This document shows, piece by piece, positions 3 through 16,032 of a stretch of DNA of 64,000 nt (positions are counted from its first letter, which is position 1; each line of letters starts with the position of its first letter). Where the stretch lies: assembly GCA_963575745.1 (NCBI GenBank), contig CAUYUJ010003891.1, forward strand, positions 739,693 through 803,692, written 5' to 3'. The DNA is from Prorocentrum cordatum. Lineage: Eukaryota > Sar > Dinophyceae > Prorocentrales > Prorocentraceae. The notes beneath the pieces were generated by a model. The model was not told the DNA's origin, made no database searches, and was given only the letters and a program-made list of their open reading frames with translations. A program made the position numbers and the translations under genes.

Positions 3-557
3 GCGGTAACTGCCGCAACTTCCGCCCCTGGAAGCACGGGTTCCGCTACGTCGCGAACAGCAAGCGGGGCGGGTTGGGGGAAAGCGACAGGGGCAACCTC
101 CTTTGCTGAGAGAGCTGCTGTTGCCGCGGAGTCCTTCAAGACAGACTCCACTGCGGAAGCGGCCTCGGCGATTGCGTCGGCGCCAGGCGCGCCAGCAGGA
201 CCTACGGACGCCTCCGCTGTGGCGGGCTCTGCAGAAGGGCACGCGCACGGCGCCGCCGCCACTTCAGGAGGAGGCGCGCACGCTTCCGCTGACGCACCCG
301 CTGCTGCGGGGCCGTCAGAAGAGCCCACATACGGCTCCGCTGCCACTTCAGCAGGGGCCACGCACGCCTCCGCTGACGGCCCCGCTGCTGCGGGGCCTTC
401 AGCAGGGCCCACCGACGGCTCCGCTGCCGCTTCAGCAGGGGCCTCGCACGCCTCGGCCGGCGCCTCCGCTGCTGCGGGGGCTCCCGCTCCTGCGGGCCAC
501 CCGCCCGCGCATTGCACTAAATGCCAGGGCGCTTGCAAGTCTGACCACTTATTGTAG
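3..557 (+). CDS. Partial Ala/Gly/Ser-rich repeat protein (C-terminal end)
   Basis: One frame is open from the left edge to a TAG at 555-557, about 184 codons. It is rich in Ala, Ser, Gly, Thr and Pro and contains imperfect repeats of about 20 residues built around SADAPAAAGPS/SADGPAAAGPS, each carrying one copy of the CCCGCTGCTGCGGGG hairpin (297-311, 371-385, about 463-480). The tail is different: CTKCQGACKSDHLL, with three cysteines. No start is visible, so this is the 3' part of a gene or exon. It is the only plausible plus-strand coding region in the first 16 kb; the neighbours all read minus. Function unknown. The main risk is that a GC-rich repeat simply happens to be open; the change of composition at the tail argues mildly for coding. 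Confidence 0.38.
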   Translation, partial: AVTAATSAPGSTGSATSRTASGAGWGKATGATSFAERAAVAAESFKTDSTAEAASAIASAPGAPAGPTDASAVAGSAEGHAHGAAATSGGGAHASADAPAAAGPSEEPTYGSAATSAGATHASADGPAAAGPSAGPTDGSAAASAGASHASAGASAAAGAPAPAGHPPAHCTKCQGACKSDHLL

Positions 558-959
558 TCCACGGAACCGTCCGCCAGACGATGGTCGCTGGGACACGGCC
601 ACTGCGAGCAGAAATGAATCTTCTTACACATGCGTCTGCCAGAGTCATAATGGCAAGCCGCGCCGCTGCTGCGGCGCATAACGTACCCGAATCCGAATAT
701 TGTCCCCTTTAGTTTCCGTGGGTTCATGAGCACGAAGTCGGGGTCTTTCTTTTTGTCTTCTTGGTACCAAAACTCCACAAATTCGCTGGCCTCGCGGTCG
801 TGCCCGACTCGCAGAGGCGCGTTTGCAGGGCGAGCGTCTCCTGGGTCTGGAGGCGGAGCGGCTGCGGCTGCCATGATGCCGAAGCCATGCGCGCGCACAC
901 GCGGCCGCCCTCTGGTCTCGAGCCCAGCGCTGCAGGGCAAGCAAACGGCCGCATCCCCC

Positions 960-1739
960 CACAAGGAGGATGTACAAGGGGGCGGGAGGAACGAGGAACA
1001 AGGGAGATATGCGGGGACCAGCGGACACACGCCTGAAAAAACACGACCGTCGGCATGCTTCGCGAGGGTTGCTGCTGTGAGATGGGCTGGTGAGGAGGGG
1101 CCCGAACGACTCACACCAGGACGAGCGGCCCGAACGACGCGCAGAAAACTCAGAAGCATGCGCACACGAACGAACGCCCCGAACGACTCCGAGAACACTC
1201 CCCAGAAAACAAGGCCAGAATGTAGGAAGTCGTCGACATCGTCGTCGAGGGAAGGCGAACGCGGCACGGGGGATGATGATAGTCTCCTCTTCCACCGTGA
1301 AGCAAGAGCCCCCCCCAAAAAAAAGCGGGCCGCTCGGGCGTTTGTACTAGACGCCAAAAGTGCAACATCCCTGCAGGCCGCCTCTGCAGGAATTGAGGCG
1401 CAGCCCCTCCCGCAGCCGCGCTGCGGATGCGCCAGCGGGCGCGGGGGAGCGGCGGCGGCGCCAGCGCGCAGCTGGTAGCTGTCCCCTCCTCCCCCCCCAT
1501 CATGGCGATGATGAGAATGATGAGCATCCTACGATGATGAGGCCCTATGTCCTGTCCCAGAGTCTCGGGCCCCGCCCTGGGCCGCGGGCCACGCCCCTGC
1601 GACCGTGTTATATATACATACATATATATATATAAATACACACATATACGTATGTACATACATATACGTCGACACACCATACATACACAATATATACATA
1701 TATGCATCATGTAATCAGTCAGCGGAGGCCCGACGCCGC
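960..1739. other. Non-coding stretch with AT microsatellite
   Basis: No convincing gene. The long open frames here lack consistent composition and overlap one another. It contains GC-rich sequence and, at 1,608-1,705, a degenerate TATA/TACA tract. Confidence 0.5.
1608..1705. repeat. AT-rich TATATACA microsatellite
   Basis: Imperfect TATATACATA tandem repeats, sharply AT-rich against GC-rich flanks. It interrupts the broken paralogue at about the point where similarity to the intact gene ends. Confidence 0.85.
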
Positions 1740-2302
1740 CCAAGACGACCGCACGGAGCGAGAGGCAGAGCGTGCCTCGAGACAATATTTTCTGTTTCTC
1801 AGGGGTTTTCTCTGGTTGGCGACGCGCCGCCACCTGCTTCGCTTTCGATGCGCCCTTCACGGTTCCGAGGAGATCCGCCATGGGATCCCGACCTTTTTTC
1901 TCCCGCTGCTGCGGGGGATCCTGCTGCAACCCCCGCTGCTGCGGAAGCGTTTTTCACAGGAGTCGACGCTTCATCCACGTTGCCTCCTTCTCCGACGCGA
2001 AGCTTCCCAAGCACTTGCTCTAACATTGTCGTTTCGTTCAAGGCGCCCTTCACGGCACTGAGACCACGGACCACCTTGAGCATGCACAGGCGGTGCTTTC
2101 CGACGGGCACGAAGGCTTCTAGGCTTTCCTCGCCGCCAAAGGGAACATAGCGCTCCTCAAATTCCAGAGCAAATCCCGATGTTCCCTCGTGACTTCGGCA
2201 CAGTCCGCCCGTCGCGCAGAGCACCCCCATGCTCGCGTCATCTTGGCGCGCTGCTTTCCCGATAACGACATCCCGCCATGTTTCCGATGCCTTGCGTTTC
2301 AT
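1740..2302 (-). pseudogene. Broken paralogue of the 318-residue unknown protein
   Basis: Starts with MKRKASETWRDVVIGKAARQ, which aligns with the intact neighbour (MKRKAEDAWREVAVGKAARQ) and stays colinear through GVLCATGGLCRSHEG, FVPVGKHRL and VDEASTPVK. At 1,894-1,899 the plus strand has six T where the intact copy has five (3,736-3,740). This moves the downstream part (KGRDPMADLLGTVKGASKAK) into another frame. Similarity then ends near PRGTLC, so the second half of the protein is missing. The homopolymer difference could be a sequencing error, but the missing 3' half cannot be. Confidence 0.75.
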
Positions 2303-2450
2303 GCCGCCGCGCGCAAGCCCTCGCTGCTGCGAAGGCGCCCGCGTTCTAGGTGTCAACTCCCCTCACTGGTGATCCGCCTGAAAACGGCTATGGAAAGCGG
2401 ACTCCTCGTCTCGAACAAATCCTCCTACTTCTCATCGGACTCCAAAACCT

Positions 2451-2899
2451 AACCACTTCTTGTGGTCGCTTTTCCACGGCCACTGCGAGCATAAATGAAT
2501 ATTCTTCCATGTGCGTTTGCCATATTCATAATGGCAAGCCGCGCCGCTGCTGCGGCGCATAACGTAATTACCCGAATCCGAATATTGATCTCTGTAGTTT
2601 CCGTGGATTCATGAGCACTCTGTCGGGGTCTTTAGTTTTGTCGTGTTGCTATAAAAACTCCACATTCGTTGACCTCGCGGTCGTGCCAGACCCGCAGAGG
2701 CGCGTTTGCAGGGCGAGCGTCGCCTGGGTCTGGGGGCGGAGCGGCTGCGGCGGCCGCGATGCGGAGGCCATGCGCGCGCACGCGCGGCCGCCCTCTTGTC
2801 TCGAGCCCAGCGCCGCAGGGCAGGCAAACGGCCGCATCCTCGCAATGATCCTCCTGTCGGTGCTGCTAGTGTGATGTTGCTGCTGCTGTTGCTCCTCCT

Positions 2900-2931
<32 letters not shown>

Positions 2932-4300
2932 ATCCTACTGGTCCCAACCCCTCCGCCCCGTCCTCGCCAGATTCCGCGAGTTCCTTTTTGTCCTCTAGCG
3001 CGCGAGCGCTGGAGAGCCGCAGGCTCGCGATCCCCCGCGCGCGCCCTAACCCCTGTCCAGTCGACAGGAACCCGCAGGCATCCACCTCAGCGGTCAGCGC
3101 GCCGCTGGTGCGGTGCATGCACCGAGTCTGTTTGCACAAAAAAAGCCGTTGTAGCGGTCAGCGCGCCGCTGCTGCGGCGCGCGCCAGCGAGCGGATAACG
3201 AGGGCATCACTGCTTTGTGTCCTGTTTGATGGCTTTCTGGACCACGTCCTCCAAGAACGCTAGAAGAACCTGCTTTTGCTGCGCACGGGTGGACTGTTTC
3301 AAGGGCGTCGTCACTTCCGTCAACGCCACGCCTGTGGACCATTTCTCCTCGTTCAGATCCTGAATCCTGGAGGCCCATGTTCGGCCTGCCATTGGCCCTC
3401 CTTTGACCTCCAGTGTCCACATCCCAGACGGGCACCACCTGGTGGTCCACGGGCGCTTCTCGTCCAAAGCGTCGTCCTCGTCGTCGTCGTTGGGTTCGGG
3501 GACGCTTTTGCCCTGGCTCTCCTCGCACAGGTAATGCAGAAGCCAAGGCAGGTCCTGACTATGAACGAGTAGTTGCCCATATTTGTTCTCATACACACAA
3601 ATCTCTTTCGTGTCGGCCTCATCTGGCTTAGGAGACATCGGCATGGTTACTCTGCAGAGCGTGCCTCGAGGAAACCCTTTCTGTTTCTCAGGGGTTTTCT
3701 TCGCTTTCGATGCGGCCTTGACGGTGCCGGGGAGATCCGCCATGGGATCCCGACCTTTTTCTCCCGCTGCTGCGGGGGGCCCTGCTGCAACCCCCGCTGC
3801 TGCGGGGGCCTCTTTCACAGGAGTCGCCGCTTCATCCACGTTGTATCCTTCTCCAGCGCGAAGCTTCTCATACAATTGTTCTAACAAGTTTGTTTCGCTC
3901 AAGGCGCCCTTCACGGCACTGTGGCCACCGACCACTTTGAGCATCCACAGGCGGTGCTTTCCGACGGGCACGAAGGCTTCATTGCTCATCTCGCCGCCCA
4001 AGACAACACAGCGCTCCTCGCATTCCAGAGCAAATCCCGCTGCTCCCTCGTGACTTCGGCACAGCCCGCCCGTCGCGCAGAGCACCCCCATGCTCGCGCC
4101 ATCTTGGCGCGCTGCTTTCCCGACAGCGACCTCCCGCCATGCGTCCTCTGCCTTGCGTTTCATGCCGCCGTGCGCAAGCCCCCGCTGCTGCGAAGGCGCG
4201 CGCGTCCTAGGCGTCGCCCCCCCTCAAAAGTGAACCGCCTGAAAACGGCTATGGAAGGCGGGCTCCTCGTCTCGAACAGATCCTCCTACTCCTCATCCGC
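2451..4300. repeat. Segmental duplication, copy B (intact)
   Basis: Partner of 541-2,450. It keeps the complete minus-strand gene at 3,207-4,163. Between the two shared parts (about 2,860-3,200) it holds CCT triplets at about 2,883-2,930 and unique GC-rich sequence without a visible gene. Confidence 0.75.
3207..4163 (-). CDS. Unknown 318-residue protein, intact paralogue
   Basis: ATG-started frame of 318 codons. The N-terminus MKRKAEDAWREVAVGKAAR is basic. Two Ala-Ala-Ala insertions near residues 120-135 are encoded by copies of the dispersed hairpin (plus strand about 3,763-3,805). An acidic loop (NDDDEDDALDEKRPW) follows at about residue 225, then a Trp-rich segment (WTTRWCPSGMWTLEV) and an alpha-helical Lys/Gln-rich tail (KQSTRAQQKQVLLAFLEDVV). 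No signal peptide or membrane segment is obvious. The paralogue at 1,740-2,302 shows the same frame under moderate divergence, which supports real coding. No family recognised. It belongs to a minus-strand gene run ending here. Confidence 0.68.
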   Translation of the reverse strand: MKRKAEDAWREVAVGKAARQDGASMGVLCATGGLCRSHEGAAGFALECEERCVVLGGEMSNEAFVPVGKHRLWMLKVVGGHSAVKGALSETNLLEQLYEKLRAGEGYNVDEAATPVKEAPAAAGVAAGPPAAAGEKGRDPMADLPGTVKAASKAKKTPEKQKGFPRGTLCRVTMPMSPKPDEADTKEICVYENKYGQLLVHSQDLPWLLHYLCEESQGKSVPEPNDDDEDDALDEKRPWTTRWCPSGMWTLEVKGGPMAGRTWASRIQDLNEEKWSTGVALTEVTTPLKQSTRAQQKQVLLAFLEDVVQKAIKQDTKQ

Positions 4301-4394
4301 ATCGTGCTCCCTCCACGAGATTCTTTCCATCTCATCCAACCCATCCCCCTCCTTCTCTCCGAACGAGCACAGCTGCCTTCCCTGTCCCTTGACC

Positions 4395-4667
4395 GCCCCT
4401 CTGCCCCTTGAGGGGGGGCCTTGTGTGCTCTGACCGGCCCTCTGTCCCACAGAGGGGGGCGCCCTGATCGAACGACCACCCCTGTTTCACAGAGGAGGGC
4501 GCGCGGAAACGCACGACCCCACCCCCTCTGTGACAGAGGGTGTCCCGCGCTTTTCCGCCCGACCCCCTCTGTGACAGAGGGGGTCCCGCGGAAAAGCGCG
4601 GGGCCCCCTCTGTCACAGAGGGGGTCGGCCTTGCGTGCTTCGACCGCCCCCCTGTCCCACAGAGCGC
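4395..4667. repeat. Seven-unit hairpin array, about 42-bp period
   Basis: Seven inverted repeats with consensus CCCCTCTGTGACAGAGGGG start near 4395, 4437, 4477, 4520, 4561, 4603 and 4645, so the spacing is 40-43 bp. The central units are near perfect; the outer ones (4395, 4477, 4645) are degenerate. Spacers are about 18 bp. Two neighbouring spacers are inverted copies of each other (CCCGCGCTTTTCCGC at about 4543 and GCGGAAAAGCGCGGG at about 4588). Not CRISPR: there are no cas genes, the genome is eukaryotic and the repeats are hairpins of variable quality. Confidence 0.85.
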
Positions 4668-4819
4668 CCCGCGAACAGGACGGCAGGACGATGAGCAGGA
4701 CGATGAGCACGGAGAGAGGAAAACAGGACACGGGAGGGAGGCGGGAACGGACGAGGGGGGACGGAGACGGAGGCGAGGCGCGAGGGGAGGGCAGGACGAA
4801 CATAGAGGGAGAGGAGCAG

Positions 4820-5060
4820 GACGAGACCTGGCAGGGGATATGCACCAGGAGAGAGATCTCATGGAGGAAGAGGAGGGGAGGGGACGAGAGGCACTCACAT
4901 TTTCCGCATTTGCAGGCCCTCGCACTTGCTCCATTTCTCAGCGGCCGCCGCGCCGCCATGAAAATTGACGTACCACCGACACTACTGCGGCTGATGCGTG
5001 ACCTCTCCCATCCCTGTCTGGTGCTGTTTCTGCTGCCCCCCTCCCCCCTCCCTCTTCGAC
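4820..5060. repeat. Dispersed 240-bp segment, copy 1
   Basis: Shares most of its length with 13,170-13,400: ATGCACCAGGAGAGAGATCT, then GAGGAAGAGGAGGGGAGGGG, then CTCCATTTCTCAGCG and GCGTGACCTCTCCCATCC. Here it lies downstream of the 830-residue minus-strand gene. In the other copy it lies next to an internal fragment of that same gene, in a different order, so the parts were shuffled. No gene assigned in the rest of 4,300-5,180. Confidence 0.75.
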
Positions 5061-5180
5061 CTCCTCTCCCCGCCCTTTTCCTCCTCCCCTCCAGCTGACG
5101 GCTGCGGGCTGCGACGGGTGGATCATCGGCCGCTGTCATCTGCCGCTCCGTTTCGCGCACCCTCCGCTGCTGCGGCGGGA

Positions 5181-7673
5181 TCACACGAAGTGGGCCCCCT
5201 GGCCAGGGATTGTCATCTTGCCGCTCTTGGGGGTTTTCCGTCCCTCCTCGGCGTCCTTCTTCCGTTTCTTCTCCTGCTCTTTCTGCTCCTTTTGCCATGC
5301 CTGCTTCTCCTTGTGGGTGTCGGTGGCCCTCTTCTCCTTTGTGATCTGCAGCATCAGCCGATCTCCGCGCACCAGCGGCACCGTGTTGTGCATGCACGGG
5401 ACAAGCACGCTGCAGACGCGGAGGGGGGCGGCTGGCTGGCACTTTGTCATTGTCTGGAACTCTTGTGGTCGAAGTGCAACGTTGAACTTCCAGTGCTCCT
5501 GTCCCTGCACTAGCTGGGCTCGGGCAAGTTCTTCTGGTGTCATCCTCTCAACTCCCCAAAAGAAGTGCAAGGACTCGGTACCTCCGAACTTAAACTGGTA
5601 CGGATTCTCTTCCTGTTCGGCCTCGCCCTGTGCAGGCGCCGCTGCTGCGGGGGCCGCCTCGTCGAGCTGCGGACCCACGGGCGCCTCGCCCTGCGCAGCC
5701 CCCGCTGCTGCGGAGGCCGCTTCCTGCGGCGCGGGCTTGAGCTCCAGCTCTGGTAATTTGAAATCAGGTTGTGCCCAATATGTTTCCATTTTCTCGACAG
5801 GAGTCGGACGTTTCTCACCGACTAGCACCTCCACTGCCCGCGGATTGCTCGAGACTTTCGGGAAAATCTTCGCGGTGGGGCAGCAAGGGAAGAGCATCAG
5901 TTTCCCCTCGGCGATGTCCCCAGTAGCCACCACATGGACACTCTTGGCTTGAACGTCATATTGCATCTGGACGGGTTGGGCGCAAGTGTCCGCGTGACGA
6001 TGGAAGCCAGTCATGACTTCCGCGATGCTTGCTTGGTGCCACCTGTCTGTGTCGAGATTGCCAGACGGAGCCGAAGCGTGCCACGATTTCACTGGGACCA
6101 CCATCAGGCTGTTCACGGGCTTGGACACTTCAGACATCTGCCTGTTCAGAGGCTTGTCTTCTTCGTTGAACTCTATCAATACTGGCTGCGGGCGAGAGCC
6201 CTCGCCACCTCCGCCGCTGCGAGGGCCAGCGGGTTTCTCGGGGGCCGCGGGCAACTTGTCGGTCCACGGCGCAGGAGGGGGCGGGAACTCTTTCTGCGCG
6301 TTCTTTTCCATTTTCTGCCAGGCCTCGCGTACTTCAGCATAGTACGGACGCACTGTCTCGCACACGGCCTCCACAACTGCCTCCAGACGAGGTTTGTTAG
6401 CCTTCACCCTTACGTACACCTGGTAGAAGGTGTCCGTCGCAGTCAGAACCGCCCCCGCGGTCAAAGTCGCGCTCTTCTCCTCCCCGTGGGCCTCCGCTGC
6501 TGCGGGGGCCAATATGCGACGGACATACCCCAACAAAGAATTGAGCTCCTGTATCCGACTGTTGCCCTCGCTGTGTCCCCAAGCCGTTTCCGGCGCGGGG
6601 CATTGTCCGCACCTCGGCTCTTGCGAGTACGCCCTCATGACAAGGGCTACCTTCACATGGGGACAATCTATGGGGAGTTGGTTGAGAACGCTCCAGGTGG
6701 CTGGTGCCAGGGAACGTATTTTGTGATCCACCCAACGTCGATCATAATCTAGAATTTGCGGTATGAGCTGCCCTGATGCGGCCCCCACGTTGATGACGAA
6801 AGTAAACATGTCCTCGAACCATTTGGCCTTGGCGTACTCGGGATGTCGTTGCGCGCAAGCCTTGAGAACAGTTTCGTACGAGATATTCACGGGGTGTCCT
6901 GTCTCAGATCCGCGCGATGCTTTCTTGCCCGCCGCTGCTGCGGTGGCGACGAAATCAGCGACGGACGTCAGGACCTCGATTTCGTGAGAGGTCACACCTT
7001 TTCCCTGTGGGTCGTTCAGGGCCGCGGAAATGATCGCGGGGCCTTGCGCGAAGACGGCATCGAAGTGAATTTCCCACGAGAGCACCTCGCAAAGCAAACC
7101 GTTATCGAGCACGTCCATGAGTTCTGTGAACTTCGGTGCGCGACGCATTTTTGGGATATCCCAGGAACCACCTGTACCTGTCTGGAACTCCTCCAAACCA
7201 CATCCTTTGTGGTCTTCGGGAATGACCCACACTGCGCCGTGCTTGAGGTTCAGCAGACCAAGGGTTAGGGTGCAGTGGCTCAGCGCCCCGTAGTTGAACG
7301 TTGACAAGCTTGTGTACGCCGAGCGTAGAGCCTCCACGGACTTCGTTTTCTGCAAGTTGTGGTCCGCGTGCGCCGTGTACGGCCTGCCATGGAGGCGCTC
7401 GTAATCGGCCTTCTTCCCCGCAGGGAGTTCCTGAACAACCACTGCTTCGTGCTGCGCCTCGTTCAAGAGGAACCTGTCTTTCAGAATGCCACACAGGAGA
7501 TTAACCACTCTGGCAGCGGAGGGGCACGTCCCACCTCTGTTCTGCGGGTGGACGCAGATATCCTCCAAGGAAATTTTGGCCTTCAGCCGCTGGCCCTCGG
7601 AGTCCTTCAAGGCATAGCGGCTGCGCAACGTGGCGGCATCATTCAGGGGACCTGACTTGATGTCCTCGGACAT
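5181..7673 (-). CDS. Unknown 830-residue protein
   Basis: Longest clean frame of region 1, starting at an ATG (MSEDIKSGPL). The N-terminal two thirds read like a folded globular protein with mixed composition and conserved-looking Trp/Cys residues (FNYGALSHCTLTLGLLNLKHG; PHVKVALVMRAYSQEPRCGQC near residue 330). Three Ala-rich insertions correspond to hairpin copies at about 6,491, 5,697 and 5,636 (plus coordinates). From about residue 760 the tail is a charged Lys/Glu/Gln coiled-coil-like stretch. No membrane segments. Function not recognised. An internal fragment recurs at 13,050-13,155 as a pseudogene, so the gene belongs to a duplicated family. The frame's length and uneven composition make coding likely. 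Confidence 0.72.
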   Translation of the reverse strand: MSEDIKSGPLNDAATLRSRYALKDSEGQRLKAKISLEDICVHPQNRGGTCPSAARVVNLLCGILKDRFLLNEAQHEAVVVQELPAGKKADYERLHGRPYTAHADHNLQKTKSVEALRSAYTSLSTFNYGALSHCTLTLGLLNLKHGAVWVIPEDHKGCGLEEFQTGTGGSWDIPKMRRAPKFTELMDVLDNGLLCEVLSWEIHFDAVFAQGPAIISAALNDPQGKGVTSHEIEVLTSVADFVATAAAAGKKASRGSETGHPVNISYETVLKACAQRHPEYAKAKWFEDMFTFVINVGAASGQLIPQILDYDRRWVDHKIRSLAPATWSVLNQLPIDCPHVKVALVMRAYSQEPRCGQCPAPETAWGHSEGNSRIQELNSLLGYVRRILAPAAAEAHGEEKSATLTAGAVLTATDTFYQVYVRVKANKPRLEAVVEAVCETVRPYYAEVREAWQKMEKNAQKEFPPPPAPWTDKLPAAPEKPAGPRSGGGGEGSRPQPVLIEFNEEDKPLNRQMSEVSKPVNSLMVVPVKSWHASAPSGNLDTDRWHQASIAEVMTGFHRHADTCAQPVQMQYDVQAKSVHVVATGDIAEGKLMLFPCCPTAKIFPKVSSNPRAVEVLVGEKRPTPVEKMETYWAQPDFKLPELELKPAPQEAASAAAGAAQGEAPVGPQLDEAAPAAAAPAQGEAEQEENPYQFKFGGTESLHFFWGVERMTPEELARAQLVQGQEHWKFNVALRPQEFQTMTKCQPAAPLRVCSVLVPCMHNTVPLVRGDRLMLQITKEKRATDTHKEKQAWQKEQKEQEKKRKKDAEEGRKTPKSGKMTIPGQGAHFV

Positions 7674-7679
7674 CTATCC

Positions 7680-7896
7680 AGGCGCCCCCGCTGCTGCGGG
7701 GGCAGCTTCCCAAACAGATGCTCCGCGACGGTTGCCCCCGCTGCTGCGGGGCCCCGCTTAAAGCACGAGTGCCTGTCGCGCGCGCGGACAGAAGGAGGGG
7801 CCTCACGGATCCGCGGCCTGCCCGCACTTGAGCAAAAGGAGAAGGAGAGGAAAGGCAGATAGAGGGAGAGAGACAGAGAGAGAGAGAGAGAGAGAC

Positions 7897-8452: not shown

Positions 8453-8923
8453 TTACATGCGAAGGGGGTCGGCGCCTTCTTGCCAGGAGCTGCCGACTGG
8501 CGGCATCTTGGACCCTAGTTTGTACCAGTTGCCCCAATGGTCGCGGTACCAAAGTGCCTGATCGAACCCATCGTCATCTTCCACGCCTGTCCTCCGAGCA
8601 GTCTTCTCATCCCACAACCCACCACGCTCCAAGACAGCAGCCCCCGCTGCTGCGAGGGCTACAGCAGCCCCCGCTACTGCGAGGGTTTGTTTCTTGGAGC
8701 TCGCCTTGCGCCGAGCTAGCGGCCGCGCGGCCGCCTCCGCCGACGCTGCCGTGGGTCGAGCCGCCGCCCCAGCGCGCTTGCTCGAATGAGGTCTGTGGTC
8801 CGGTTTCCGAAAACCCCTCTTCTCGCCGACGCGGCATCGTCCCGTCCTTGTGTCGGGTTTCCTATTCCTCTTCTCGCCGACGCGGCATCGCCCGATCCTT
8901 GCGTCGGGCTTCCTAACCCTCAT
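8453..8923 (-). CDS. Unknown small basic protein with internal repeat
   Basis: ATG at 8,923 gives 156 residues. The N-terminus is a tandem repeat of 16-17 residues (RKPDARIGRCRVGEKR, then RKPDTRTGRCRVGEKR, then a partial RKPD). An Ala-rich segment containing two hairpin copies follows (plus 8,641-8,690, including one with a CGCTACTGCG variant). The C-terminus looks globular and aromatic (FDQALWYRDHWGNWYKLGS). The frame stays open further upstream through a GGTCCC minisatellite, so the true 5' end is uncertain. No family recognised; the Trp/Tyr-rich tail is the best sign of real coding. Confidence 0.5.
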   Translation of the reverse strand: MRVRKPDARIGRCRVGEKRNRKPDTRTGRCRVGEKRGFRKPDHRPHSSKRAGAAARPTAASAEAAARPLARRKASSKKQTLAVAGAAVALAAAGAAVLERGGLWDEKTARRTGVEDDDGFDQALWYRDHWGNWYKLGSKMPPVGSSWQEGADPLRM

Positions 8924-9029
8924 GGCTGGCGATCTCGAACCCAAACGGCACGGCAGAGATTGGGAGCGGGACAAATAGGTGACACATGGAGCGGGACAGG
9001 GGCGGGGAGCCCAGGACGGGCAGCAGGAC

Positions 9030-9215
9030 CGACCACGGGACCGGGACCGGGACCAGCACCCCCGTTCCCGGTCCCGGTCCCGGTCCCGGCCCCGGTCCCG
9101 GCCCCGGTCCCGTGGTCGGTTCTGCTGCTCGTCCAGGGCTCCCCGTCCCTGTCCCGCCGGTCCCGGTCCCGGTCCCGCTCTCCCCCTGGTCCCGGTCCCG
9201 GTCCCGGTGTCGGTC
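9030..9215. repeat. GGTCCC hexanucleotide minisatellite
   Basis: Imperfect CCCGGT/GGGACC repeats running from about 9,030 to 9,215, with a change of orientation near 9,060. All frames are open, giving spurious Gly-Pro or Asp-Arg proteins. Confidence 0.9.
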
Positions 9216-9475
9216 CTGGCCCCTGCAGGACCCCTCCTCCTCCTCCTCCTCTTGCTCGCCCCCCTTTCCCCCCCAGCAAAAAGCAAACGACGACGACGAG
9301 CACGGCGACAACGACCGCGATTTCTTAAGCCGCTCAATGCGAGCGCCTGCCTCCTCGCGCGCGCGCGCGCGCCGAGCCCGCGCCTCAGATCTCTTATGCT
9401 AACCCCCGCTGCTGCGGAGACCACCCCTGCGGAGACCACCCCCGCTGCTGCGGAGGTCTCCGCAGCCGCGCGCCG

Positions 9476-11353
9476 TCAGCTGGAGCCGCTTGAAGGGCTG
9501 CGGCGCCGCGACAATGCCTCGAACGCGTCACTGTTGAACGCAAACGTGTCCGCAGGAAGCGGCGACTCCCTGGGGAGGAGCTGCGGCGGGGGAGGCTGCG
9601 GCGGCGGCCTCGGGGCGAGCGGCGCTGCCAGAGGGCGGGGCGTCTGCGACTCTCTTGGCAGGAGCCGCTTCGGCGGAGGGTGCGGCGGCTGGCTCGGGAC
9701 GAGCCGCGGTGGCGTAGGGTGCGGTGTCTCCTCCAGCGGGGGGGCCCCGCGGCGTCCTCCTCCACGCGGGGGAGATGGCGGTGGTGGTGGCATCATTGGC
9801 GGCATGCCTGGCGGACGGCATATCTGGCCTGGGAGGAGCGGGCGCCATGCCCTCGGCCTCAGCATCACCTGACCTGTGTGGGGGGGGTGCGCGGGCGGCG
9901 CGGGCAGGAACCGCCCTGCCCGCGCCGCCCTGCGGTCGCCGCCCTCCACCTGCCCACTGCGTCTGGAGCGGCTGCGCCCCCTCTGCTCCTGCCCTCTGCG
10001 TCTGGAGCGGCTGCGCCCCCGCTGCTGCGAGGGCACTCTCCTCATTCGGTCTTTGCTCCTCTGCTCCCGCTTTCTGCGTGTGGAACGGCTGCCCCCCCGC
10101 TGCTGCGAGGGCTTCTTCCTCTTTGGGGTTCTGCTCCTGATATCTTTCTTCTTGTTATTCTTCTTCTTGTTTTTCTTCATCTTCTCCTTCTCCTTCTTCT
10201 CCTCCCTCTCACCTCTGTCAGGGTTGCTCTGTTCGTCCTGGGGCGGCGTGGGGCTGCAGGAGTCGACCCAGAGCGGGGCCTCGTCGCCCTCAAGCTCCTC
10301 CTGGGCTCCGTGCGCCCCCGCTGCTGCGGAGGCTGCTGCTTCAGATTCTGTCTCCGCCTCCTCCTGGTCTCCGTGCGCCTCCGCTGCTGCTGAGGCTGTT
10401 GCTTCGGGTTCTGTCTCCGCCCACTCTCCCCGCTGTTTTTCCCACTTGGCTTCCCGCTTCCGATCCTTCTTCCTGGCCGCGGCGCCTTTGCCAGACTTCC
10501 TGTTCTTGGCTTCTATAAAAACGAACAATGTGTGGCAATGTTCCGTGAGGCGGTTCGCATCCTGGGCCTTGTGGATCACCCTGTGCAAGTGCGGCCAGTC
10601 ATATGTATCCTGCTCCTTGCGCTCCGCGTCCGTGAGCCTGACCCAGGTCGGACGCGCCACCCAATCCAACTGGCGGTACTGCAGGCTGGTGAGGAGCCTC
10701 CGCTGCTGCGGAGGCTGGGAATCCTGATTCAACCAGCGCGGCAGATCAGGCTGCCCGCCCGCAGGGCACTCGCGAACCTGAGCGGGGCCAAGAATCACGA
10801 TGTAGTGCGGGTGCGTCACGTGACAACCTTTTGTCGGACACCACAAAGCCAAGCCGAGTACGCCTGTACCAGACGCGCCGCAACTTCTGAGCAGCTCCGA
10901 AAGATCCTCCCTGCCTGCGTCAAAGATCCCAGCGAGAATACGCACTCGGTTCCACAACGCCAGGTTCCGCAGCCCGTTGCGGAAGTTCTCGGGCCACGGG
11001 TGCCCCGCGAGGCTCGTCTGGTGTCGGAAGAACACGCCCCCCACTGCTATGGAGAGTTTGCCTTCCTTTGCTTTCGGATTGTGAGCCACCGCTGCCAGGG
11101 TCACCGACCAGGCCTGAACCAGGAACTTCCCGTGGCAGTGCCAGCGAAGCACCTCGCACTGCTCGACGCGCTCGGGAACCCAGAGGAGAGCCCCGACGCA
11201 CTCGCGCGCGACCTCCCCGTGGAAGCCACTTTGGCGGATGAGATCGTCGAGATGTTGCTTCCGCCGATCGCGATTGATGCGTGCGCCAGGCTCGAAGGAG
11301 ACTAAGACGACCCCTTCGCGCCTGTCCCTGACAGCTGCGACCCAATCCGACAG
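9476..11353 (-). CDS. Unknown protein with conserved N-terminal domain and RS/Pro-rich tail
   Basis: The reading frame is protein-like from about 11,353 (LSDWVAAVRDRREG) down to a TGA at 9,476; no ATG marks the start, so a 5' exon or frameshift must supply it. The first about 270 residues look globular (WVPERVEQCEVLRWHCHGKF; WNRVRILAGIFDAG; ALWCPTKGCHVTHPHYIVIL). The rest is low complexity: Ala/Glu with two hairpin copies, Lys-rich, Arg-Ser-rich (SRSRRRGQEQRGRSRSRR) and finally Pro-rich, as in nuclear or RNA-associated proteins. The segment RVRILAGIFD weakly recalls the GDFN region of endonuclease/exonuclease/phosphatase folds, but the acidic and Asn residues are not in place. That is a guess, not an assignment. 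Confidence 0.55.
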   Translation of the reverse strand: MSDWVAAVRDRREGVVLVSFEPGARINRDRRKQHLDDLIRQSGFHGEVARECVGALLWVPERVEQCEVLRWHCHGKFLVQAWSVTLAAVAHNPKAKEGKLSIAVGGVFFRHQTSLAGHPWPENFRNGLRNLALWNRVRILAGIFDAGREDLSELLRSCGASGTGVLGLALWCPTKGCHVTHPHYIVILGPAQVRECPAGGQPDLPRWLNQDSQPPQQRRLLTSLQYRQLDWVARPTWVRLTDAERKEQDTYDWPHLHRVIHKAQDANRLTEHCHTLFVFIEAKNRKSGKGAAARKKDRKREAKWEKQRGEWAETEPEATASAAAEAHGDQEEAETESEAAASAAAGAHGAQEELEGDEAPLWVDSCSPTPPQDEQSNPDRGEREEKKEKEKMKKNKKKNNKKKDIRSRTPKRKKPSQQRGGSRSTRRKREQRSKDRMRRVPSQQRGRSRSRRRGQEQRGRSRSRRSGQVEGGDRRAARAGRFLPAPPAHPPHTGQVMLRPRAWRPLLPGQICRPPGMPPMMPPPPPSPPRGGGRRGAPPLEETPHPTPPRLVPSQPPHPPPKRLLPRESQTPRPLAAPLAPRPPPQPPPPQLLPRESPLPADTFAFNSDAFEALSRRRSPSSGSS

Positions 11354-12078
11354 GGGGCGCCCGCGCGCAGGACGAGGGAAGCAAAAGCCAGATTCACGCG
11401 CGCCTCTGTCTGCCCCTCCTGCACCTGGTCTTCGTCGTCGTACAGCAGGGGCACAAGAGGCTTGGAATGGCTCGGGCCGCGCTCTTCCGATGGGAAGTGC
11501 GGGCGGCCTTCCTCTGGGAAGCCCTCTTGGACAGGAAGCGCCGGCGACCGAGCCTTCGAGGTCAAGGCGAGAGTCTTGATCACGCGGGCCCCCGCTGCTG
11601 CGGAGGAGCTTTCACGCAGTTTGCGCGCTGCGATCAGAGCCTGCCGTTGTCGCCAATTAGTCGTGCAGGGAGATCTCGGTCTCGGGTCATCGGAGCCACC
11701 CTGTCCAGGCTCGATTACCACTGTGGCGGCGCCTGGCTCCACGGATGCCCCCGCTGCTGCGCAAGCCGCCTCCTCAGCCGTTATGACTACAAGGCGGTTG
11801 GCGGCGGCCGTTAACTTCCGCGCATCTTCGATCAGGCCATTCTGCATCAATTCCTGAGCAACCAGCAGGCTCTGCGAAACGCTTTCCTGGGCACCAGACA
11901 TCGACGAAAACAATGACCGCAGTTTCGTTGCAACCTCCCCCCCCGCTGCTGCGGAGGCCGGTGCTGGATCTGCCATTCCATGCGGAACTGCATCAGGGGC
12001 CTCCTCTGGCAGCCCCCGCTGCTGCGGAGACTTCGGCAGAGGTTCCTGCGCGGCTCCAGTCGCGCCAGGCTGCTCCAT
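11302..12078 (-). CDS. Unknown Ala-rich protein overlapping the next gene's frame
   Basis: ATG at 12,078 (MEQPGATGAAQEPLPKSP) gives 258 residues; the same frame is open and similar to a paralogous segment up to about 12,160, so the true start may be upstream. A helical core (ATKLRSLFSSMSGAQESVSQ, then LLVAQELMQNGLIEDARKLT) is followed by Ala-rich pieces encoded by hairpin copies at 11,590 and 11,750 and an acidic stretch (LLYDDEDQVQEGQTEARV). The last about 40 codons overlap, in another frame, the start of the protein-like frame at 11,353. The two could be one gene joined by an unseen intron or a frameshift. Function unknown. Confidence 0.5.
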   Translation of the reverse strand: MEQPGATGAAQEPLPKSPQQRGLPEEAPDAVPHGMADPAPASAAAGGEVATKLRSLFSSMSGAQESVSQSLLVAQELMQNGLIEDARKLTAAANRLVVITAEEAACAAAGASVEPGAATVVIEPGQGGSDDPRPRSPCTTNWRQRQALIAARKLRESSSAAAGARVIKTLALTSKARSPALPVQEGFPEEGRPHFPSEERGPSHSKPLVPLLYDDEDQVQEGQTEARVNLAFASLVLRAGAPCRIGSQLSGTGAKGSS

Positions 12079-13038
12079 GCCCTGGGCCGCTCCCGTCGCG
12101 GAGGCGGGCGGGCGCGGCGGGGGGCAGACCTGCAACGGCTGCGGATTCACTTTATCGCAATGCCATCCCTCCCTGCGCTCAAATGACTTTTCCCCTTGCG
12201 CCACTCTGCTGCTCCCACTTCTGAACTACCTCATCCCTTCTACCTCTGCCTGCTCCCTCCTCTTCCTGTTCAGTCCTCCCTCCTCCCTCCGCCGCGCTCA
12301 TTTCTCCTTGCTCCCTTCTCTGCTCCTCCTACGTGGGGCGTTTCACGACAACGACGACGACGACGCCGACGAGAACGATGACCACGACGGCGACAACGAG
12401 GGCAACGACGACCACGACGACGACGACGAGGACGATGACCACGACGGCTACCAGCGACGACGACTAGCGACGACGACGATCGACGACGACGACGCCGACC
12501 ACGACGACGACGGCGAGGACGACAACGAGCGACGACGACGACGACAACCGACGCCGACGAGGAACGACGACGACGAACGAGGACGACGATTACGACGACG
12601 AGATGACGAAGGATCGAAGATCGAACCTCGAAGTGCGAAGCTTCGAAATTCAAACTTCGATCTTCGAACTCCGAACTTCCAGCTTCTAACTGCGAACGTC
12701 GCTGGGGTGCCAGGGATGGACTGGGATGGAGGGAAAATGGGAAGGAAAAGCGAGGAAGCGGGAGAGGAAGTTGGAGGAGAACGAACAGGCGTGGAGCGAC
12801 GAGGAACGGGCGGCGAGGAGCCGACGTTGAGGGCGGCGGGATGGGGGGACAGGGAGGAGAGGGGAGACTTCAAAACGAAAATCGCGCCACGGCGCCTGCG
12901 CGCGCGCCCCCGATCTCGGCGGCCGACGCGCGCGCCCCTGCAGAAATGCAACGCGCCCTTAATTCGAGCCCCGCTGCTGCGGAGCCACCTACTCCACAAC
13001 CAAATCGTCTGGGGAGCTGTTCGGACCCCAAACTACTA
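11990..13038. repeat. Segmental duplication (5' segment plus upstream), copy 1
   Basis: Colinear with 13,893-14,894. It includes the first codons of the frame at 11,302-12,078, upstream text such as CTGCTCCCACTTCTGAACTA, a CGA-triplet tract, a TTCGAA-rich stretch and a terminal CCCCGCTGCTGCGGAGCC hairpin. Confidence 0.9.
12346..12606. repeat. CGA triplet repeat, copy 1
   Basis: Imperfect (GACGAC)n tract, about 260 bp, followed by TTCGAA/GCGAAG-type short repeats to about 12,705. Part of the larger duplication. Confidence 0.9.
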
Positions 13039-13049
13039 ATTAGTTCTTC

Positions 13050-13155
13050 AGCCACTCGGCTCTTGCGAGTCCGCCCTCATGACAAAGGGCAACCTTCACA
13101 TGGGGGCACTCAATGGGGTGTTGATTGAGAGCGCCCCATGTGGCTGGTGGCAGGA
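13050..13155 (-). pseudogene. Fragment of the 830-residue gene
   Basis: About 105 bp matching 6,607-6,712. On the minus strand it reads LNQHPIECPHVKVALCHEGG, against LNQLPIDCPHVKVALVMRAY in the long gene. It is cut off at both ends and followed by a stop. Confidence 0.75.
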
Positions 13156-13169
13156 ACGGACGAGGGGGG

Positions 13170-13400
13170 GCGGATAGAGGAGCAGAACGAGCACTGGCAG
13201 GGAATATGCACCAGGAGAGAGATCTCATGGAGGAAGAGGAGGGGAGGGGACGAGAGCCACTCATAATTAAGCGCACGCAGGCCCACGCACGTGCTCCATT
13301 TCTCAGCGACCGCCGCGCCGCCATGAGAACTGTCGTACCACCGCCGCTAATGCGGCGGATGCGTGACCTCTCCCATCCCTGTCCTGCGCTGTTTCTGCTA
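13170..13400. repeat. Dispersed 240-bp segment, copy 2
   Basis: Copy of 4,820-5,060 with scattered substitutions. It directly adjoins the gene fragment at 13,050-13,155, on the opposite side to the arrangement at 4.8 kb. Confidence 0.75.
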
Positions 13401-13575
13401 CCGCCGCCCCCCCTTCCAGCCGAGCTCGGGTTTCATGCTCGGAGACGGGCGCGGCTGGCGGCTCTTAGCGCGGGTGCGCGTGCTGCCTCCAACTCCTCAT
13501 CCCCCTCCTCCTCCTCTCCTCATCCCCCCCCCCTTCCTCCTCGTCCTCCTCTATCGGCCCAGCTCCGATCGCCGC

Positions 13576-13875
13576 TCAGCTCCCCTGGTGCGGCTGGCGG
13601 CAAAAGTACCGAATATTGCCTGGGATGTCCTTCACCTTCTTCTTCGACATCTCAAGCATCATCTTGCCCATCTCCTCGGTGCGGCGCGCCTCCTCCATCA
13701 TCTGCCGCGCCTGGTCGACGAGCATCTGGCCCTTCACTCCAACGGCGCGTGCATGGCGGCAACGATTGCGCCACTGGAGCAACCGCACCACCATGGTCGC
13801 CCAGTGCCAAACACTGCCCTCCGTCGTGATGAGCTCGAAGTCATCGACGTCGTACTTGCCCGCGATGCTCGCCAT
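13576..13875 (-). CDS. Unknown 99-residue helical protein
   Basis: ATG-started frame of 99 codons ending in TGA. It opens MASIAGKYDVDDFELITTEG, has a Trp/Arg-rich patch (WHWATMVVRLLQWRNRCRHA), then a Met/Glu/Arg heptad-like helix (VDQARQMMEEARRTEEMGKM) and a basic end. A coiled coil is likely. Composition is normal and it contains no hairpin copy, unlike its neighbours. It may be a small gene or one exon. Its 5' flank (13,893-14,894) is a duplicate of the 5' end and flank of the gene at 11,302-12,078. Confidence 0.5.
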   Translation of the reverse strand: MASIAGKYDVDDFELITTEGSVWHWATMVVRLLQWRNRCRHARAVGVKGQMLVDQARQMMEEARRTEEMGKMMLEMSKKKVKDIPGNIRYFCRQPHQGS

Positions 13876-13892
13876 AGCGGCGCAAAAACCGC

Positions 13893-14894
13893 GAAGGAGC
13901 CTCCTCTGGCAGTCCCCGCTGCTGCGGAGACTTCGGCAGAGGCTCCTGCGCGGCTCCAGTCGCGGAGGCGGGCGGGCGCGGCGGGAGGCAGACCTGCAAC
14001 GGCTGCGGCTTCACTTTATCGCATTTCCATCCCTCCCTGCACTCACATGGCTTTTCCCATTGCGCCAGTCTGCTGCTCCCACTTCTGAACTACCTCATCC
14101 CTTCTACCTCCATCTGCACCCTCCTCTTCCTGTTCAATCCTCCCTCCTCCCTCCACCGTGCTCATTTCTCCTTACTCCCTTCTCTGCTCCTCCTACGTGG
14201 GGCGTTTCACGACAACGACGACGACGATGACCACGACGGCGACAACGAGGGCGACGACGACCACGACGACGACGACGAGGACGATGACCACGACGGCGAC
14301 CAGCGACGACGACTAGCGACGACAACGACCGACGACGACGACGCCGACCACGACGACGACGGCGACGACGACAACGAGCGACGACGACAACGACAATCGA
14401 CGCCGACGAGGAACGACGACGACGAACGAGGACGACGATTACGACGACGAGATGACGAAGGTTCGAAGATCGAACCTCGAAGTGCGAAGCTTCGAAATTC
14501 AAACTGCAACCTTCGAACTCCGAACTTCAAACTTCGAACTGCGAACTTCGCTGGGGTGCCAGGGATGCAATGGGATGGAGGGAAAAATGGGAAGGAGAGA
14601 ACGAGGAAGCGGGAGAGGAAATTGGAGGAGAACGAACAGGCGTGGAGCGACGAGGAACGGGCGGCGAGGAGCCGACGTTGAGGGCGGCGGGATGGGGGGA
14701 CAGGGAGGAGAGGGAAGACTTCTTTACGAAGATCGCGCCACGGCGCCTGCACGAGCGCCCCCGATCTCGGCGGCCGACGCGCGCGCCCCTGCAGAAATGC
14801 AACGCGCCCTTCATTCGAGCCCCGCTGCTGCTGCGGAGCCATCTACTCCGAAACCAAATCGTCTGGGGAGTTATTCGGTCCCAAAACTACTGTT
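13893..14894. repeat. Segmental duplication (5' segment plus upstream), copy 2
   Basis: Second copy of 11,990-13,038. The coding-like part reads PQPLQVCLPPRPPASATGAA in the same frame as the first copy (PQPLQVCPPPRPPASATGAA) and lacks a 12-residue tandem duplication present there. It ends right at the 3' end of the next minus-strand gene. Confidence 0.9.
14211..14456. repeat. CGA triplet repeat, copy 2
   Basis: Counterpart of 12,346-12,606, slightly shorter, followed by the same TTCGAA-rich stretch (14,457-14,550). Confidence 0.9.
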
Positions 14895-16032
14895 TGCCAC
14901 CCGCTGCTGCGGACGCCGAGGGCCTGGTGCTGGACGCCGCGGCCCCGCTGCTGCGGGGCCCCTGAGAGGGCGTCGGCCCCCCCTTCTCTCTGGCGGCGTC
15001 GAACTTGACCTTGCGCTCCACACCGAGGTCCTTGTGCCAGCGAAAAGTTCCTGACCCGTCGCTCCCGCCCAAACCCGCGGTTGGTGGCCTCACCGTGTCC
15101 GCGCGGGGGGCGAGGGGCAGAGCTTCGACCTTCCTGTCGCCCCAGTGCGGGTGTAAACGGACGCCTGTCCCGTCGTCGCGGTGCAACACGAAATCCCACA
15201 TCGGCAGCTTCACTTTCACCCGCTGCCCCGCGAACTGTCGCGCGCGCACAATACTCTGACGCATGTGGTCGTAGCTGTTTGGCCGGACTTCGAGGGAACA
15301 GCCGATCAGAGCCCCGCTGCTGCGGGGCCCCTCCACGACCTCCCTGATATCTTCCTCCCTGAGCGTCGCCACCATCTCTTGCCACCGCCAAGGGACTTCC
15401 TCGTCGCTTTTGAAACCAAAGCTCGTCCTCGCACCGTGGTCGCAAACAGCGACCATGGTGGGCTTCGCATTGTCAAACCACTTGGCTTCTGACTCGAACG
15501 GGGCAGTTGGGTCTTCATTCAGATGGCGCCACCATTTCAACGCTTGATTGTGTTGCTTAAACGAAGTGCCGAGCCTCTCTTCATAACTCAAAAAATAATT
15601 AACATCAAACTTCTCAAAATCCTGGGGCCCGCGCGCCGCCGCCGCTGCGGTGGCGCGGGGCTCCTGCGCCGCAGGCGCGGCTCGGGATCCCGACCCCTCT
15701 CCTGAAACTGTGTTCCCAAGTTCTGGTACGTTTCGGAGGGCAGCCCTCACGAAATTATCGAATTCGGGCTTGCCGAGACCAGGGGCGCGGGGGCTCACAA
15801 CGCTAAGCGCGGCGAAGCGAGACGGCCGTTGAGGCGAGACCGCCGCCGCTGCTGCGGCGGCAGGGCCATCGCGCCATTTGGCGTCCTCCGTTGGCGTGTG
15901 CCCGTCTTGTCGCCAGTCTCTCCAACCCCTCGCTGACCAATCATGGCCGTCCTCCCAGCCACGCCAGCCGCTGCTGCGGCTATCCCACCATCCTCCCGCG
16001 CCATCCCATGTGTATCCGCCTGCATCGCCCAT
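14887..16032 (-). CDS. Unknown 381-residue protein, Trp-rich N-terminus
   Basis: The ATG at 16,032 gives MGDAGGYTWDGAGGWWDSRS; the open frame upstream is low-grade sequence running into a hairpin array, so this ATG is preferred. Residues 1-50 are Gly/Trp/Asp-rich. A globular part follows (FDVNYFLSYEERLGTSFKQ; WWRHLNEDPTAPFESEAKWF; VKVKLPMWDFVLHRDDGTG). Ala runs at about residues 60-65, 130 and near the C-terminus coincide with hairpin copies at about 15,845, 15,640, 15,311, 14,941 and 14,901. No domain recognised. It shares style and insert pattern with the other unknown proteins of the block. Confidence 0.65.
   Translation of the reverse strand: MGDAGGYTWDGAGGWWDSRSSGWRGWEDGHDWSARGWRDWRQDGHTPTEDAKWRDGPAAAAAAAVSPQRPSRFAALSVVSPRAPGLGKPEFDNFVRAALRNVPELGNTVSGEGSGSRAAPAAQEPRATAAAAARGPQDFEKFDVNYFLSYEERLGTSFKQHNQALKWWRHLNEDPTAPFESEAKWFDNAKPTMVAVCDHGARTSFGFKSDEEVPWRWQEMVATLREEDIREVVEGPRSSGALIGCSLEVRPNSYDHMRQSIVRARQFAGQRVKVKLPMWDFVLHRDDGTGVRLHPHWGDRKVEALPLAPRADTVRPPTAGLGGSDGSGTFRWHKDLGVERKVKFDAAREKGGPTPSQGPRSSGAAASSTRPSASAAAGGKQ

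What the first reader, a model, noticed from the sequence alone, without database searches (positions are those of the whole stretch)
297..15980. A TGCT-loop GC hairpin saturates the first 16 kb, with compensating stem changes, and is nearly absent elsewhere
About 40 copies of CCGC-TGCT-GCGG occur in the left quarter and I find only near misses in the rest. Outer stem bases differ between copies yet still pair: CCCCGC/GCGGGG, CCTCCGC/GCGGAGG, GCGCCGC/GCGGCGC, GGCCCCGC/GCGGGGCC. Copies sit inside several unrelated reading frames (as Ala-Ala-Ala inserts) as well as between genes. This suggests a self-priming or hairpin-templated insertion element, or a conserved DNA/RNA structure that marks these genes. 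Small GC hairpin elements are known from some organelle genomes; a nuclear, partly exonic family tied to one gene block would be new to me.
Basis: partly seen in the sequence, partly recalled or inferred. Interest (0 to 1): 0.88.

Follow-up and report, generated by a model that had tools for sequence, protein, structure and literature searches.

The report
Giant transposon carrying fifty oriented hairpins
The repeated hairpin is real, but it belongs to one 24,000-base jumping DNA element, present in many copies in a very large genome, that carries about fifty copies of the hairpin, all pointing the same way, inside and between its genes.

Summary
The 12-mer CCGCTGCTGCGG occurs 32 times on the + strand and never on the - strand, all at window 298-15979. 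The boundary at 16 kb is the edge of a mobile element. Near-identical copies on two other contigs start and stop at the same points, with unrelated flanks. The element spans window -7375 to 16597 (23,973 bp) and ends in inverted repeats beside a TA target duplication, present in all 8 further elements checked. A 26-base piece of its terminal repeat occurs 368 times in the 4.13-Gb genome, against 0 for the control. It holds 52 hairpin cores (45 with the full 12-mer), spread along its length, all in the sense orientation of its six longest ORFs. Forty-six copies have unrelated flanks; their outer stem pairs covary (pairs 5, 7, 8: p 0.003, 0.0003, 0.0001), giving a unit of about 20 nt. Hairpins sit in all three reading phases and between ORFs. 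No empty site was found, and 25.8 kb of other DNA inside such elements has none, so they were fixed before the family amplified. I infer, but cannot show, selection on structure, most likely as sense RNA. Distant relatives could not be searched.

The parts
1..16597 (-). Part inside the window of the 23,973-bp TIR element (whole: contig C3891 732317-756289, i.e. window -7375 to 16597); its six longest ORFs all on -
   Evidence: co-terminal with copies on C114 and C146, unrelated flanks; TIR positions
16569..16597 (-). Right terminal inverted repeat AAATGATCACTTTAATGCGGCTTCTGGAT, mirror of the left end; flanked by TA
   Evidence: TA on both sides in 8 of 8 further elements
16598..16599 (.). TA target-site duplication (right copy)
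16481..16567 (.). Subterminal array of CCCCCTCTGTCACAGAGGGGG-type palindromes (also at the left end and at about 4440-4640); possible transposase binding sites (inferred)
5181..7673 (-). 830-aa ORF from ATG, no Pfam family at its cut-off; four hairpins in frame Ala-Ala-Ala
3207..4223 (-). 338-codon frame (first ATG at codon 21); part duplicated as 1799-2362
11302..12225 (-). 307-codon frame with hairpins in two phases
14887..16596 (-). 569-codon stop-to-stop frame with hairpins as Ala-Ala-Ala and Arg-Ser-Ser-Gly
294..313 (-). hairpin unit (12-mer at 298)
378..397 (-). hairpin unit (12-mer at 382)
462..481 (-). hairpin unit (12-mer at 466)
659..678 (-). hairpin unit (12-mer at 663)
1899..1918 (-). 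hairpin unit (12-mer at 1903)
1929..1948 (-). hairpin unit (12-mer at 1933)
2317..2336 (-). hairpin, core only CGCTGCTGCG
2540..2559 (-). hairpin unit (12-mer at 2544)
3162..3181 (-). hairpin unit (12-mer at 3166)
3760..3779 (-). hairpin unit (12-mer at 3764)
3790..3809 (-). hairpin unit (12-mer at 3794)
4178..4197 (-). hairpin, core only
5160..5179 (-). hairpin unit (12-mer at 5164), just 3' of the 830-aa ORF
5635..5654 (-). hairpin unit (12-mer at 5639)
5698..5717 (-). hairpin unit (12-mer at 5702)
6490..6509 (-). hairpin unit (12-mer at 6494)
6928..6947 (-). hairpin unit (12-mer at 6932)
7684..7703 (-). hairpin unit (12-mer at 7688), 5' of the 830-aa ORF
7734..7753 (-). hairpin unit (12-mer at 7738), 5' of the 830-aa ORF
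8341..8360 (-). hairpin unit (12-mer at 8345)
8640..8659 (-). hairpin, core only
9402..9421 (-). hairpin unit (12-mer at 9406)
9438..9457 (-). hairpin unit (12-mer at 9442)
10015..10034 (-). hairpin, core only
10093..10112 (-). hairpin, core only
10314..10333 (-). hairpin unit (12-mer at 10318)
10696..10715 (-). hairpin unit (12-mer at 10700)
11588..11607 (-). hairpin unit (12-mer at 11592)
11747..11766 (-). hairpin, core only
11939..11958 (-). hairpin unit (12-mer at 11943)
12012..12031 (-). hairpin unit (12-mer at 12016)
12967..12986 (-). hairpin unit (12-mer at 12971)
13912..13931 (-). hairpin unit (12-mer at 13916)
14897..14916 (-). hairpin unit (12-mer at 14901)
14941..14960 (-). hairpin unit (12-mer at 14945)
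15310..15329 (-). hairpin unit (12-mer at 15314)
15842..15861 (-). hairpin unit (12-mer at 15846)
15964..15983 (-). hairpin unit (12-mer at 15968)

Best explanation
SHOWN: the block is the right 70% of a 24-kb DNA transposon (inverted terminal repeats, TA target duplication, many copies) in a 4.1-Gb genome. An oriented hairpin of about 20 nt (coding-sense consensus GCCYCC-GC-AGCA-GC-GGGGGC, 8-bp stem, nearly fixed 4-nt loop) occurs about 50 times along it, inside and outside reading frames, and this set of sites was in place before the compared copies spread. INFERRED: the hairpins multiplied inside an ancestral element and were kept because the stem-loop is a repeated, strand-specific recognition site of the element, most likely read in the sense transcript. 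A loop-and-stem-binding protein, of the element or of the host, would thereby tell the element's long RNA from other RNA (for processing, export or translation). The elements move as whole units by an element-encoded cut-and-paste DDE-type transposase (inferred from the ends and from catalytic-looking motifs seen by eye). Weights: transposon 0.97; hairpins fixed before amplification 0.9; selection on the stem-loop 0.6; acting as sense RNA rather than as DNA 0.4.
For: Three co-terminal copies (205 of 23,895, 382 of 23,924 and 444 of 24,038 aligned bases differ) with unrelated flanks. TIR 26-mer 368 times, control 0. TA at both ends in 8 of 8 further elements. 45 full 12-mers in the element against at most 4 in 400 simulations, 0 on the other strand. 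46 copies with unrelated flanks; shuffled-partner test per pair: pair 4 p 0.13, 5 0.003, 6 0.03, 7 0.0003, 8 0.0001, 9 0.41, 10 0.16, 11 0.013 (not corrected for eight tests). Loop: among CCGC-NNNN-GCGG, TGCT is 45 of 55 in the element and 0 of 7 in the rest of the window. Sites intact in 236 of 249 site comparisons with 7 other elements; the 13 losses are 10 substitution cases and one 15-bp collapse shared by 3 elements. 0 hairpins in 25.8 kb of DNA inside those elements that has no match in the window's copy. Three reading phases plus positions outside ORFs argue against a protein-level motif. G-U wobble is possible on the coding-sense strand in 31 cells against 9 on the other (46 copies, binomial p 0.0007).
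Against: The wobble excess is mostly a matter of column composition: shuffling partners already gives 30.4 against 11.2 (seen 36 and 11, 52 copies; P for the sense excess 0.022). Folding energies do not clearly favour the sense strand: means -13.6 sense and -13.4 antisense, but sense is the more stable in 17 of 46 copies and the less stable in 28. Pair 11 also reaches p 0.013, so the edge of the unit is not sharp. Substitutions between copies show no codon bias, so current copies drift. Spacing is not significantly more even than random once related copies are removed (P 0.15; 0.01 with all 52). The six longest ORFs lie on one strand, so sense orientation and DNA orientation cannot be told apart. 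No Pfam family reaches its cut-off for any ORF tested (best E 0.17). No factor that binds the hairpin is known, and transcription was not tested.
Confidence: 0.5

Rival explanations
1. Selfish mini-repeat: a tiny palindrome that copied itself (by hairpin-templated insertion or gene conversion) into many places of an ancestral element and was then frozen; no function, tolerated because its core is stop-free in all six frames.
For: 46 unrelated contexts; any reading phase and positions outside ORFs; the sequence CCGCTGCTGCGG itself has no stop codon in any of six frames; palindromic repeats are known in bacteria and organelles (listings with starts of abstracts).
Against: A palindrome inserting at random should land in both orientations; 45 to 0 here. 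No target duplication, no empty site among close copies, none in other DNA inside the elements. Stem covariation asks for selection, or for many source variants.
Confidence: 0.3
2. DNA-level recognition sites: oriented sites along the element read by a DNA-binding or cruciform-binding protein, comparable in layout to uptake or Chi-like sequences of bacteria (comparison recalled).
For: One orientation, whole-element spread, inside and outside ORFs; the element carries a second palindrome family near its ends.
Against: Nothing here shows protein binding; stem covariation with a nearly fixed loop is more typical of a folded single strand; spacing of independent copies does not differ from random.
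Confidence: 0.2
3. Protein-level low-complexity: alanine-rich linkers (Pro-Ala-Ala-Ala-Gly) encoded by GCA/GCG codons that happen to fold.
For: Ala-Ala-Ala is the commonest phase: 17 of 27 hairpins in the six longest frames, 4 of 4 in the 830-aa ORF; one 84-bp tandem repeat carries three copies.
Against: The 675-codon ORF has one copy in each phase; others read Arg-Ser-Ser-Gly or Pro-Gln-Gln-Arg; several lie upstream of the first ATG or between ORFs; synonymous freedom would not give stem covariation or an invariant GCAGCAGC.
Confidence: 0.04
4. Chance or CAG-triplet background in GC-rich DNA.
For: The bare 12-mer is common genome-wide (15,283).
Against: Density, strand and pairing.
Confidence: 0.01

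Closest known systems
Giant TIR DNA transposons of eukaryotes (reviewed in PMC6431247; only abstract and section list seen)
   Same: Over 20 kb, several ORFs, TIRs, target duplication
   Different: The section headings seen cover giant Gypsy-like elements, terminons, Helitrons, Polintons and Teratorn; a TA-target element with an internal hairpin array is not among those headings (text not read)
Tc1/mariner/pogo DDE transposons (features recalled)
   Same: TA duplication; TIRs; ORF at window -3562 to -1535 with motifs like NFDQSP, MMADDHGPH and QTVD (resemblance by eye)
   Different: 24 kb instead of 1-5 kb (recalled); no Pfam match for that ORF even at E 10
Rickettsia palindromic elements (recalled; listings only), and PARCELs (PMC2996958, abstract seen)
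   Same: Palindromic DNA inside unrelated reading frames; PARCELs also tied to mobile elements
   Different: Those units are longer (PARCEL: 25 residues in tandem arrays; RPE about 100-150 bp, recalled); here about 20 nt, dispersed, one-stranded, in one transposon
GC clusters and double-hairpin or repetitive hairpin elements of mitochondria (PMC4478555, PMC2800124; listing with starts of abstracts seen)
   Same: Short GC hairpins repeated many times
   Different: Organellar; here on contigs up to 2.3 Mb of a 4.1-Gb genome and concentrated in one transposon
Introner elements of dinoflagellates (passages of PMC10666404 and PMC11453091)
   Same: Inverted repeats, mobile, same probable host
   Different: Introners form introns; here the unit is about 20 nt and is read through in long ORFs

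Membership tests
DNA transposon (class II, TIR) | Terminal inverted repeats at both ends | tested here: met
DNA transposon (class II, TIR) | Fixed-length target duplication | tested here: met
   TA on both sides in 8 of 8 elements; TA before the TIR at 10 of 10 single ends (one side each)
DNA transposon (class II, TIR) | Many dispersed copies with unrelated flanks | tested here: met
   368 ends; flanks differ in the three copies read
Tc1/mariner/pogo superfamily | Transposase of that family | tested here: inconclusive
   675-codon ORF has catalytic-looking motifs by eye, but no Pfam and no PDB match
Tc1/mariner/pogo superfamily | TA target duplication | tested here: met
MITE or insertion element (the hairpin itself) | Target duplication and occupied/empty sites | tested here: not met
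   No duplication signal; no clean empty site in 249 site comparisons among close copies
Rickettsia palindromic element type | In-frame presence in unrelated ORFs | tested here: met
   (that each frame is coding was not shown)
Rickettsia palindromic element type | Empty orthologous sites showing insertion | tested here: inconclusive
   None found, but only close copies could be compared
Organellar hairpin elements | Organelle genome | tested here: not met
   Elements lie on contigs of up to 2.3 Mb and on many contigs
Introner | Forms a spliced intron | not testable with these tools
   No RNA data; units are read through in ORFs
Known structured RNA | Rfam match | tested here: not met
   0 matches at gathering score in window 1-17000
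Polinton or integrated virus | Capsid, polymerase or integrase genes | tested here: inconclusive
   No Pfam family at its cut-off in the 14 ORFs tested; weak chance-level ones only; genes split by introns would be missed

The most novel reading that the evidence does not exclude
A giant nuclear transposon marks its whole transcript, on one strand only, with about fifty copies of one structured RNA tag, placed without regard to reading frame or gene boundary and kept as a stem-loop by compensating changes: a self-identification code of a mobile element. I saw no counterpart in the listings of my paper searches.
Probability: 0.3. Interest if true: 0.85.

Novelty: new variant of a known kind. Interest (0 to 1): 0.6.

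Why it matters
If the hairpins are recognised in RNA or DNA, this element shows how a very large transposon can label itself, and one RNA-protein interaction would be enough to test it. Even without function it is a clear case, on large contigs of a very large genome, of a tiny palindrome spread through and between the reading frames of one mobile element, and its copy number makes the timing measurable. It also gives precise ends for a 24-kb family in a dinoflagellate-sized genome, useful for annotation because its ORFs could be counted as host genes.

Tried and rejected
Chance, triplet-repeat background and a protein-level motif were tested and rejected. Target duplications of the hairpin: none; the best z was 3.2 over 486 overlapping tests, which I attribute to palindromy. 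Evenness of spacing: P 0.0099 with all 52 copies but 0.15 with 46 unrelated ones, so not claimed. Wobble strand test: positive against 50:50 but weak against shuffled columns, so only a hint. Codon-position bias among nine copies compared with the window's: none seen (1,763 substitutions), and a duplicated ORF pair shows 11 synonymous against 53 non-synonymous codon differences (the end of that alignment is not homologous), so coding status rests on ORF length alone. Rfam: nothing. Structure prediction of residues 1-520 of the 830-aa protein: mean pLDDT 38, not used, no fold search made. Transposase-like ORF in viral contigs and phages: no match. Spliced-leader relic: no exact match to its 12-base words in the element. 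Of the ten 800-base element ends read, eight carry hairpins at the expected places, two leave the family after about 133 and 270 bases and were not counted as empty sites. The 25.8 kb includes, besides nested inserts, about 0.85 kb that two elements (C3335, C4958) appear to share and that may be their own sequence. The first version of the comparison script failed and was rerun; one search was rejected for wrong coordinates and corrected.

Not done: a search for diverged relatives, which would decide between selfish repeat and selected site. The protein search of the genome did not complete.


Full report
What was checked. The 12-mer CCGCTGCTGCGG occurs 32 times on the + strand of the window and not once on the - strand, all between 298 and 15979; the shorter core CGCTGCTGCG gives 38 in the first 16 kb. 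Simulated sequence of the same composition (Markov order 1 to 4, 100 runs each, for the element and for the first 16 kb) never gave more than 4 copies. Among four-base-loop hairpins with stems of 5 bp or more, loop TGCT accounts for 16 of 49 in the left 16 kb and 0 of 172 in the rest.

What the block is. The window lies in a genome of 4,128,499,153 bases in 21,875 contigs. This fits the published Prorocentrum cordatum CCMP1329 assembly (4.15 Gb, 22,724 scaffolds; passages of PMC10666404); the identification is inferred from size only. In the genome-wide listing, which shows 100 of 15,283 places, 43 lie on a 23-kb stretch of contig C114, 19 on C146 and 38 are scattered (my count). I fetched both stretches and the DNA left of the window. 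The three blocks are 98-99% identical over about 24 kb, begin and end at the same points, and have unrelated flanks. Their ends are inverted copies of ATCCAGAAGCCGCATTAAAGTGATCATTT, next to TA. A 26-base piece of that terminal repeat occurs 368 times in the genome, 0 times when read backwards as a control. Of the 100 places listed there, I count 18 inverted pairs 22-26 kb apart, the window's included. Eight more elements of 0.2 to 34 kb were fetched; all eight have TA on both sides. This is a TIR DNA transposon with a TA target duplication. The window's copy is 23,973 bp, window -7375 to 16597.

Genes. The six longest stop-to-stop frames (839, 830, 713, 711, 675 and 569 codons) all run on the - strand; the longest on + has 393. 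Those of 830 codons (5181-7673, from an ATG) and 675 codons (-3562 to -1535) are, by my own estimate of one stop in about 35 codons at 63% GC, far too long for chance. The 675-codon ORF has, by eye and by recollection only, the look of a pogo-type DDE transposase (NFDQSP, MMADDHGPH, QTVD), which agrees with the TA target; no Pfam family matches it even at E 10 and no PDB chain does. For the other ORFs tested no Pfam family reaches its cut-off; weak ones, best E 0.17, are at chance level. Copies differ without codon-position bias, so present copies appear to drift.

The hairpin. The element holds 52 cores, 45 with the full 12-mer, none of the 12-mers reversed. After removing copies with related flanks, 46 remain. 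Counted from the loop, stem pairs 5, 7 and 8 covary clearly beyond shuffled partners (p 0.003, 0.0003, 0.0001), pair 6 weakly (0.03), pairs 9 and 10 do not (0.41, 0.16), pair 11 weakly (0.013). The unit is thus about 20 nt: an 8-bp stem and a nearly fixed loop, TGCT on the + strand, AGCA in the coding sense. By contrast the 8 genome-background copies of the 12-mer that I could read have 5 of 32 outer pairs. The hairpins are spread along the whole element (4, 5, 3, 5, 5, 4, 4, 4, 6, 5, 2, 5 per 2 kb). In the six longest frames 17 are read as Ala-Ala-Ala, 6 as Ser-Ser-Gly and 4 as Gln-Gln-Arg; the 675-codon ORF has one in each phase; others lie upstream of first ATGs or between ORFs. So the conserved object is nucleic acid, not protein.

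History. In seven other elements 236 of 249 site comparisons keep the core; ten losses are substitution cases and three are one shared 15-bp collapse between two neighbouring hairpins. No site is cleanly empty. In 25.8 kb of DNA inside these elements that has no match in the window's copy, mostly nested inserts, there is no hairpin. Eight of ten additional element ends show hairpins at the expected places; the other two leave the family within about 133 and 270 bases. The set of sites is older than the spread of these copies, and I see no sign that the hairpin is now jumping. Three internal duplications carry their hairpins with them, and in one the loop gained a triplet (12971 against 14822).

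How it may work. One orientation in 45 of 45 copies, covarying stem, nearly invariant loop, indifference to reading frame and a spread over the whole element fit a repeated recognition site better than debris. I favour a site read in the sense transcript, because a single strand must fold and because wobble-tolerant mismatches fall on the sense strand (31 against 9). The second point is weak: column composition explains most of it, and folding energies do not clearly favour sense. The selfish-repeat and DNA-site rivals remain open. The deciding data, diverged relatives with or without the hairpins, could not be had: the genome search tool did not answer the protein queries.

Known kinds. The element is a very large TIR transposon; its superfamily is not settled. 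The hairpin resembles palindromic repeats of bacteria and of mitochondria (abstract and listings) in kind but differs in size, place, strandedness and concentration in one transposon. I saw no description of it in the listings of the paper searches; the words hairpin and palindrom do not occur in the main texts of PMC10666404 and PMC11453091. Subscription papers and supplements were not available.

Noticed in passing
L024 (C3538:55000-58500), 213-bp element: A 213-bp miniature copy made of both element ends joined, with TA on each side: a MITE-like deletion derivative of the giant element.
   Followed up: partly
window 4440-4640, 16481-16567 and both element ends: A second, symmetric palindrome family (CCCCCTCTGTCACAGAGGGGG) clusters next to the ends and once in the middle; copy number in the middle varies between the three copies aligned.
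   Followed up: partly
window 16840-17350: Repeated inverted motif GCGAAGCGCGAATAACTTCGCG beside the element, outside it; looks like another dispersed hairpin repeat.
   Followed up: no
C225 element (L025-L027) at 632-859 and 11942-12196; C3958 element at 19491-19871: A-rich inserts (GC 6-25%) inside the GC-rich element, resembling poly-A retro-insertions.
   Followed up: no
C303 element at 22952-26887; C641 element at 17939-19538: Nested 3.9-kb and 1.6-kb inserts whose ends look inverted: probably other transposons that landed in this element.
   Followed up: no
window 12081-13037 and 13945-14891; 1837-2436 and 3699-4297; 582-956 and 2463-2839: Internal segmental duplications of the element (87-92% identical), each carrying its hairpins along.
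   Followed up: partly
C3335 element 11723-12571 and C4958 element 5057-5904: Two diverged elements (91-97% identical to the window's copy in their long aligned blocks) appear to share about 0.85 kb that the window's copy lacks (same first 30 bases and length, not aligned): perhaps a second subfamily.
   Followed up: no
L010 3603-6122 (-) and 9387-9998 (-): ORFs that by eye recall an endonuclease/phosphatase fold (GDFN) and an OTU-like motif (DGDC); no Pfam support.
   Followed up: partly
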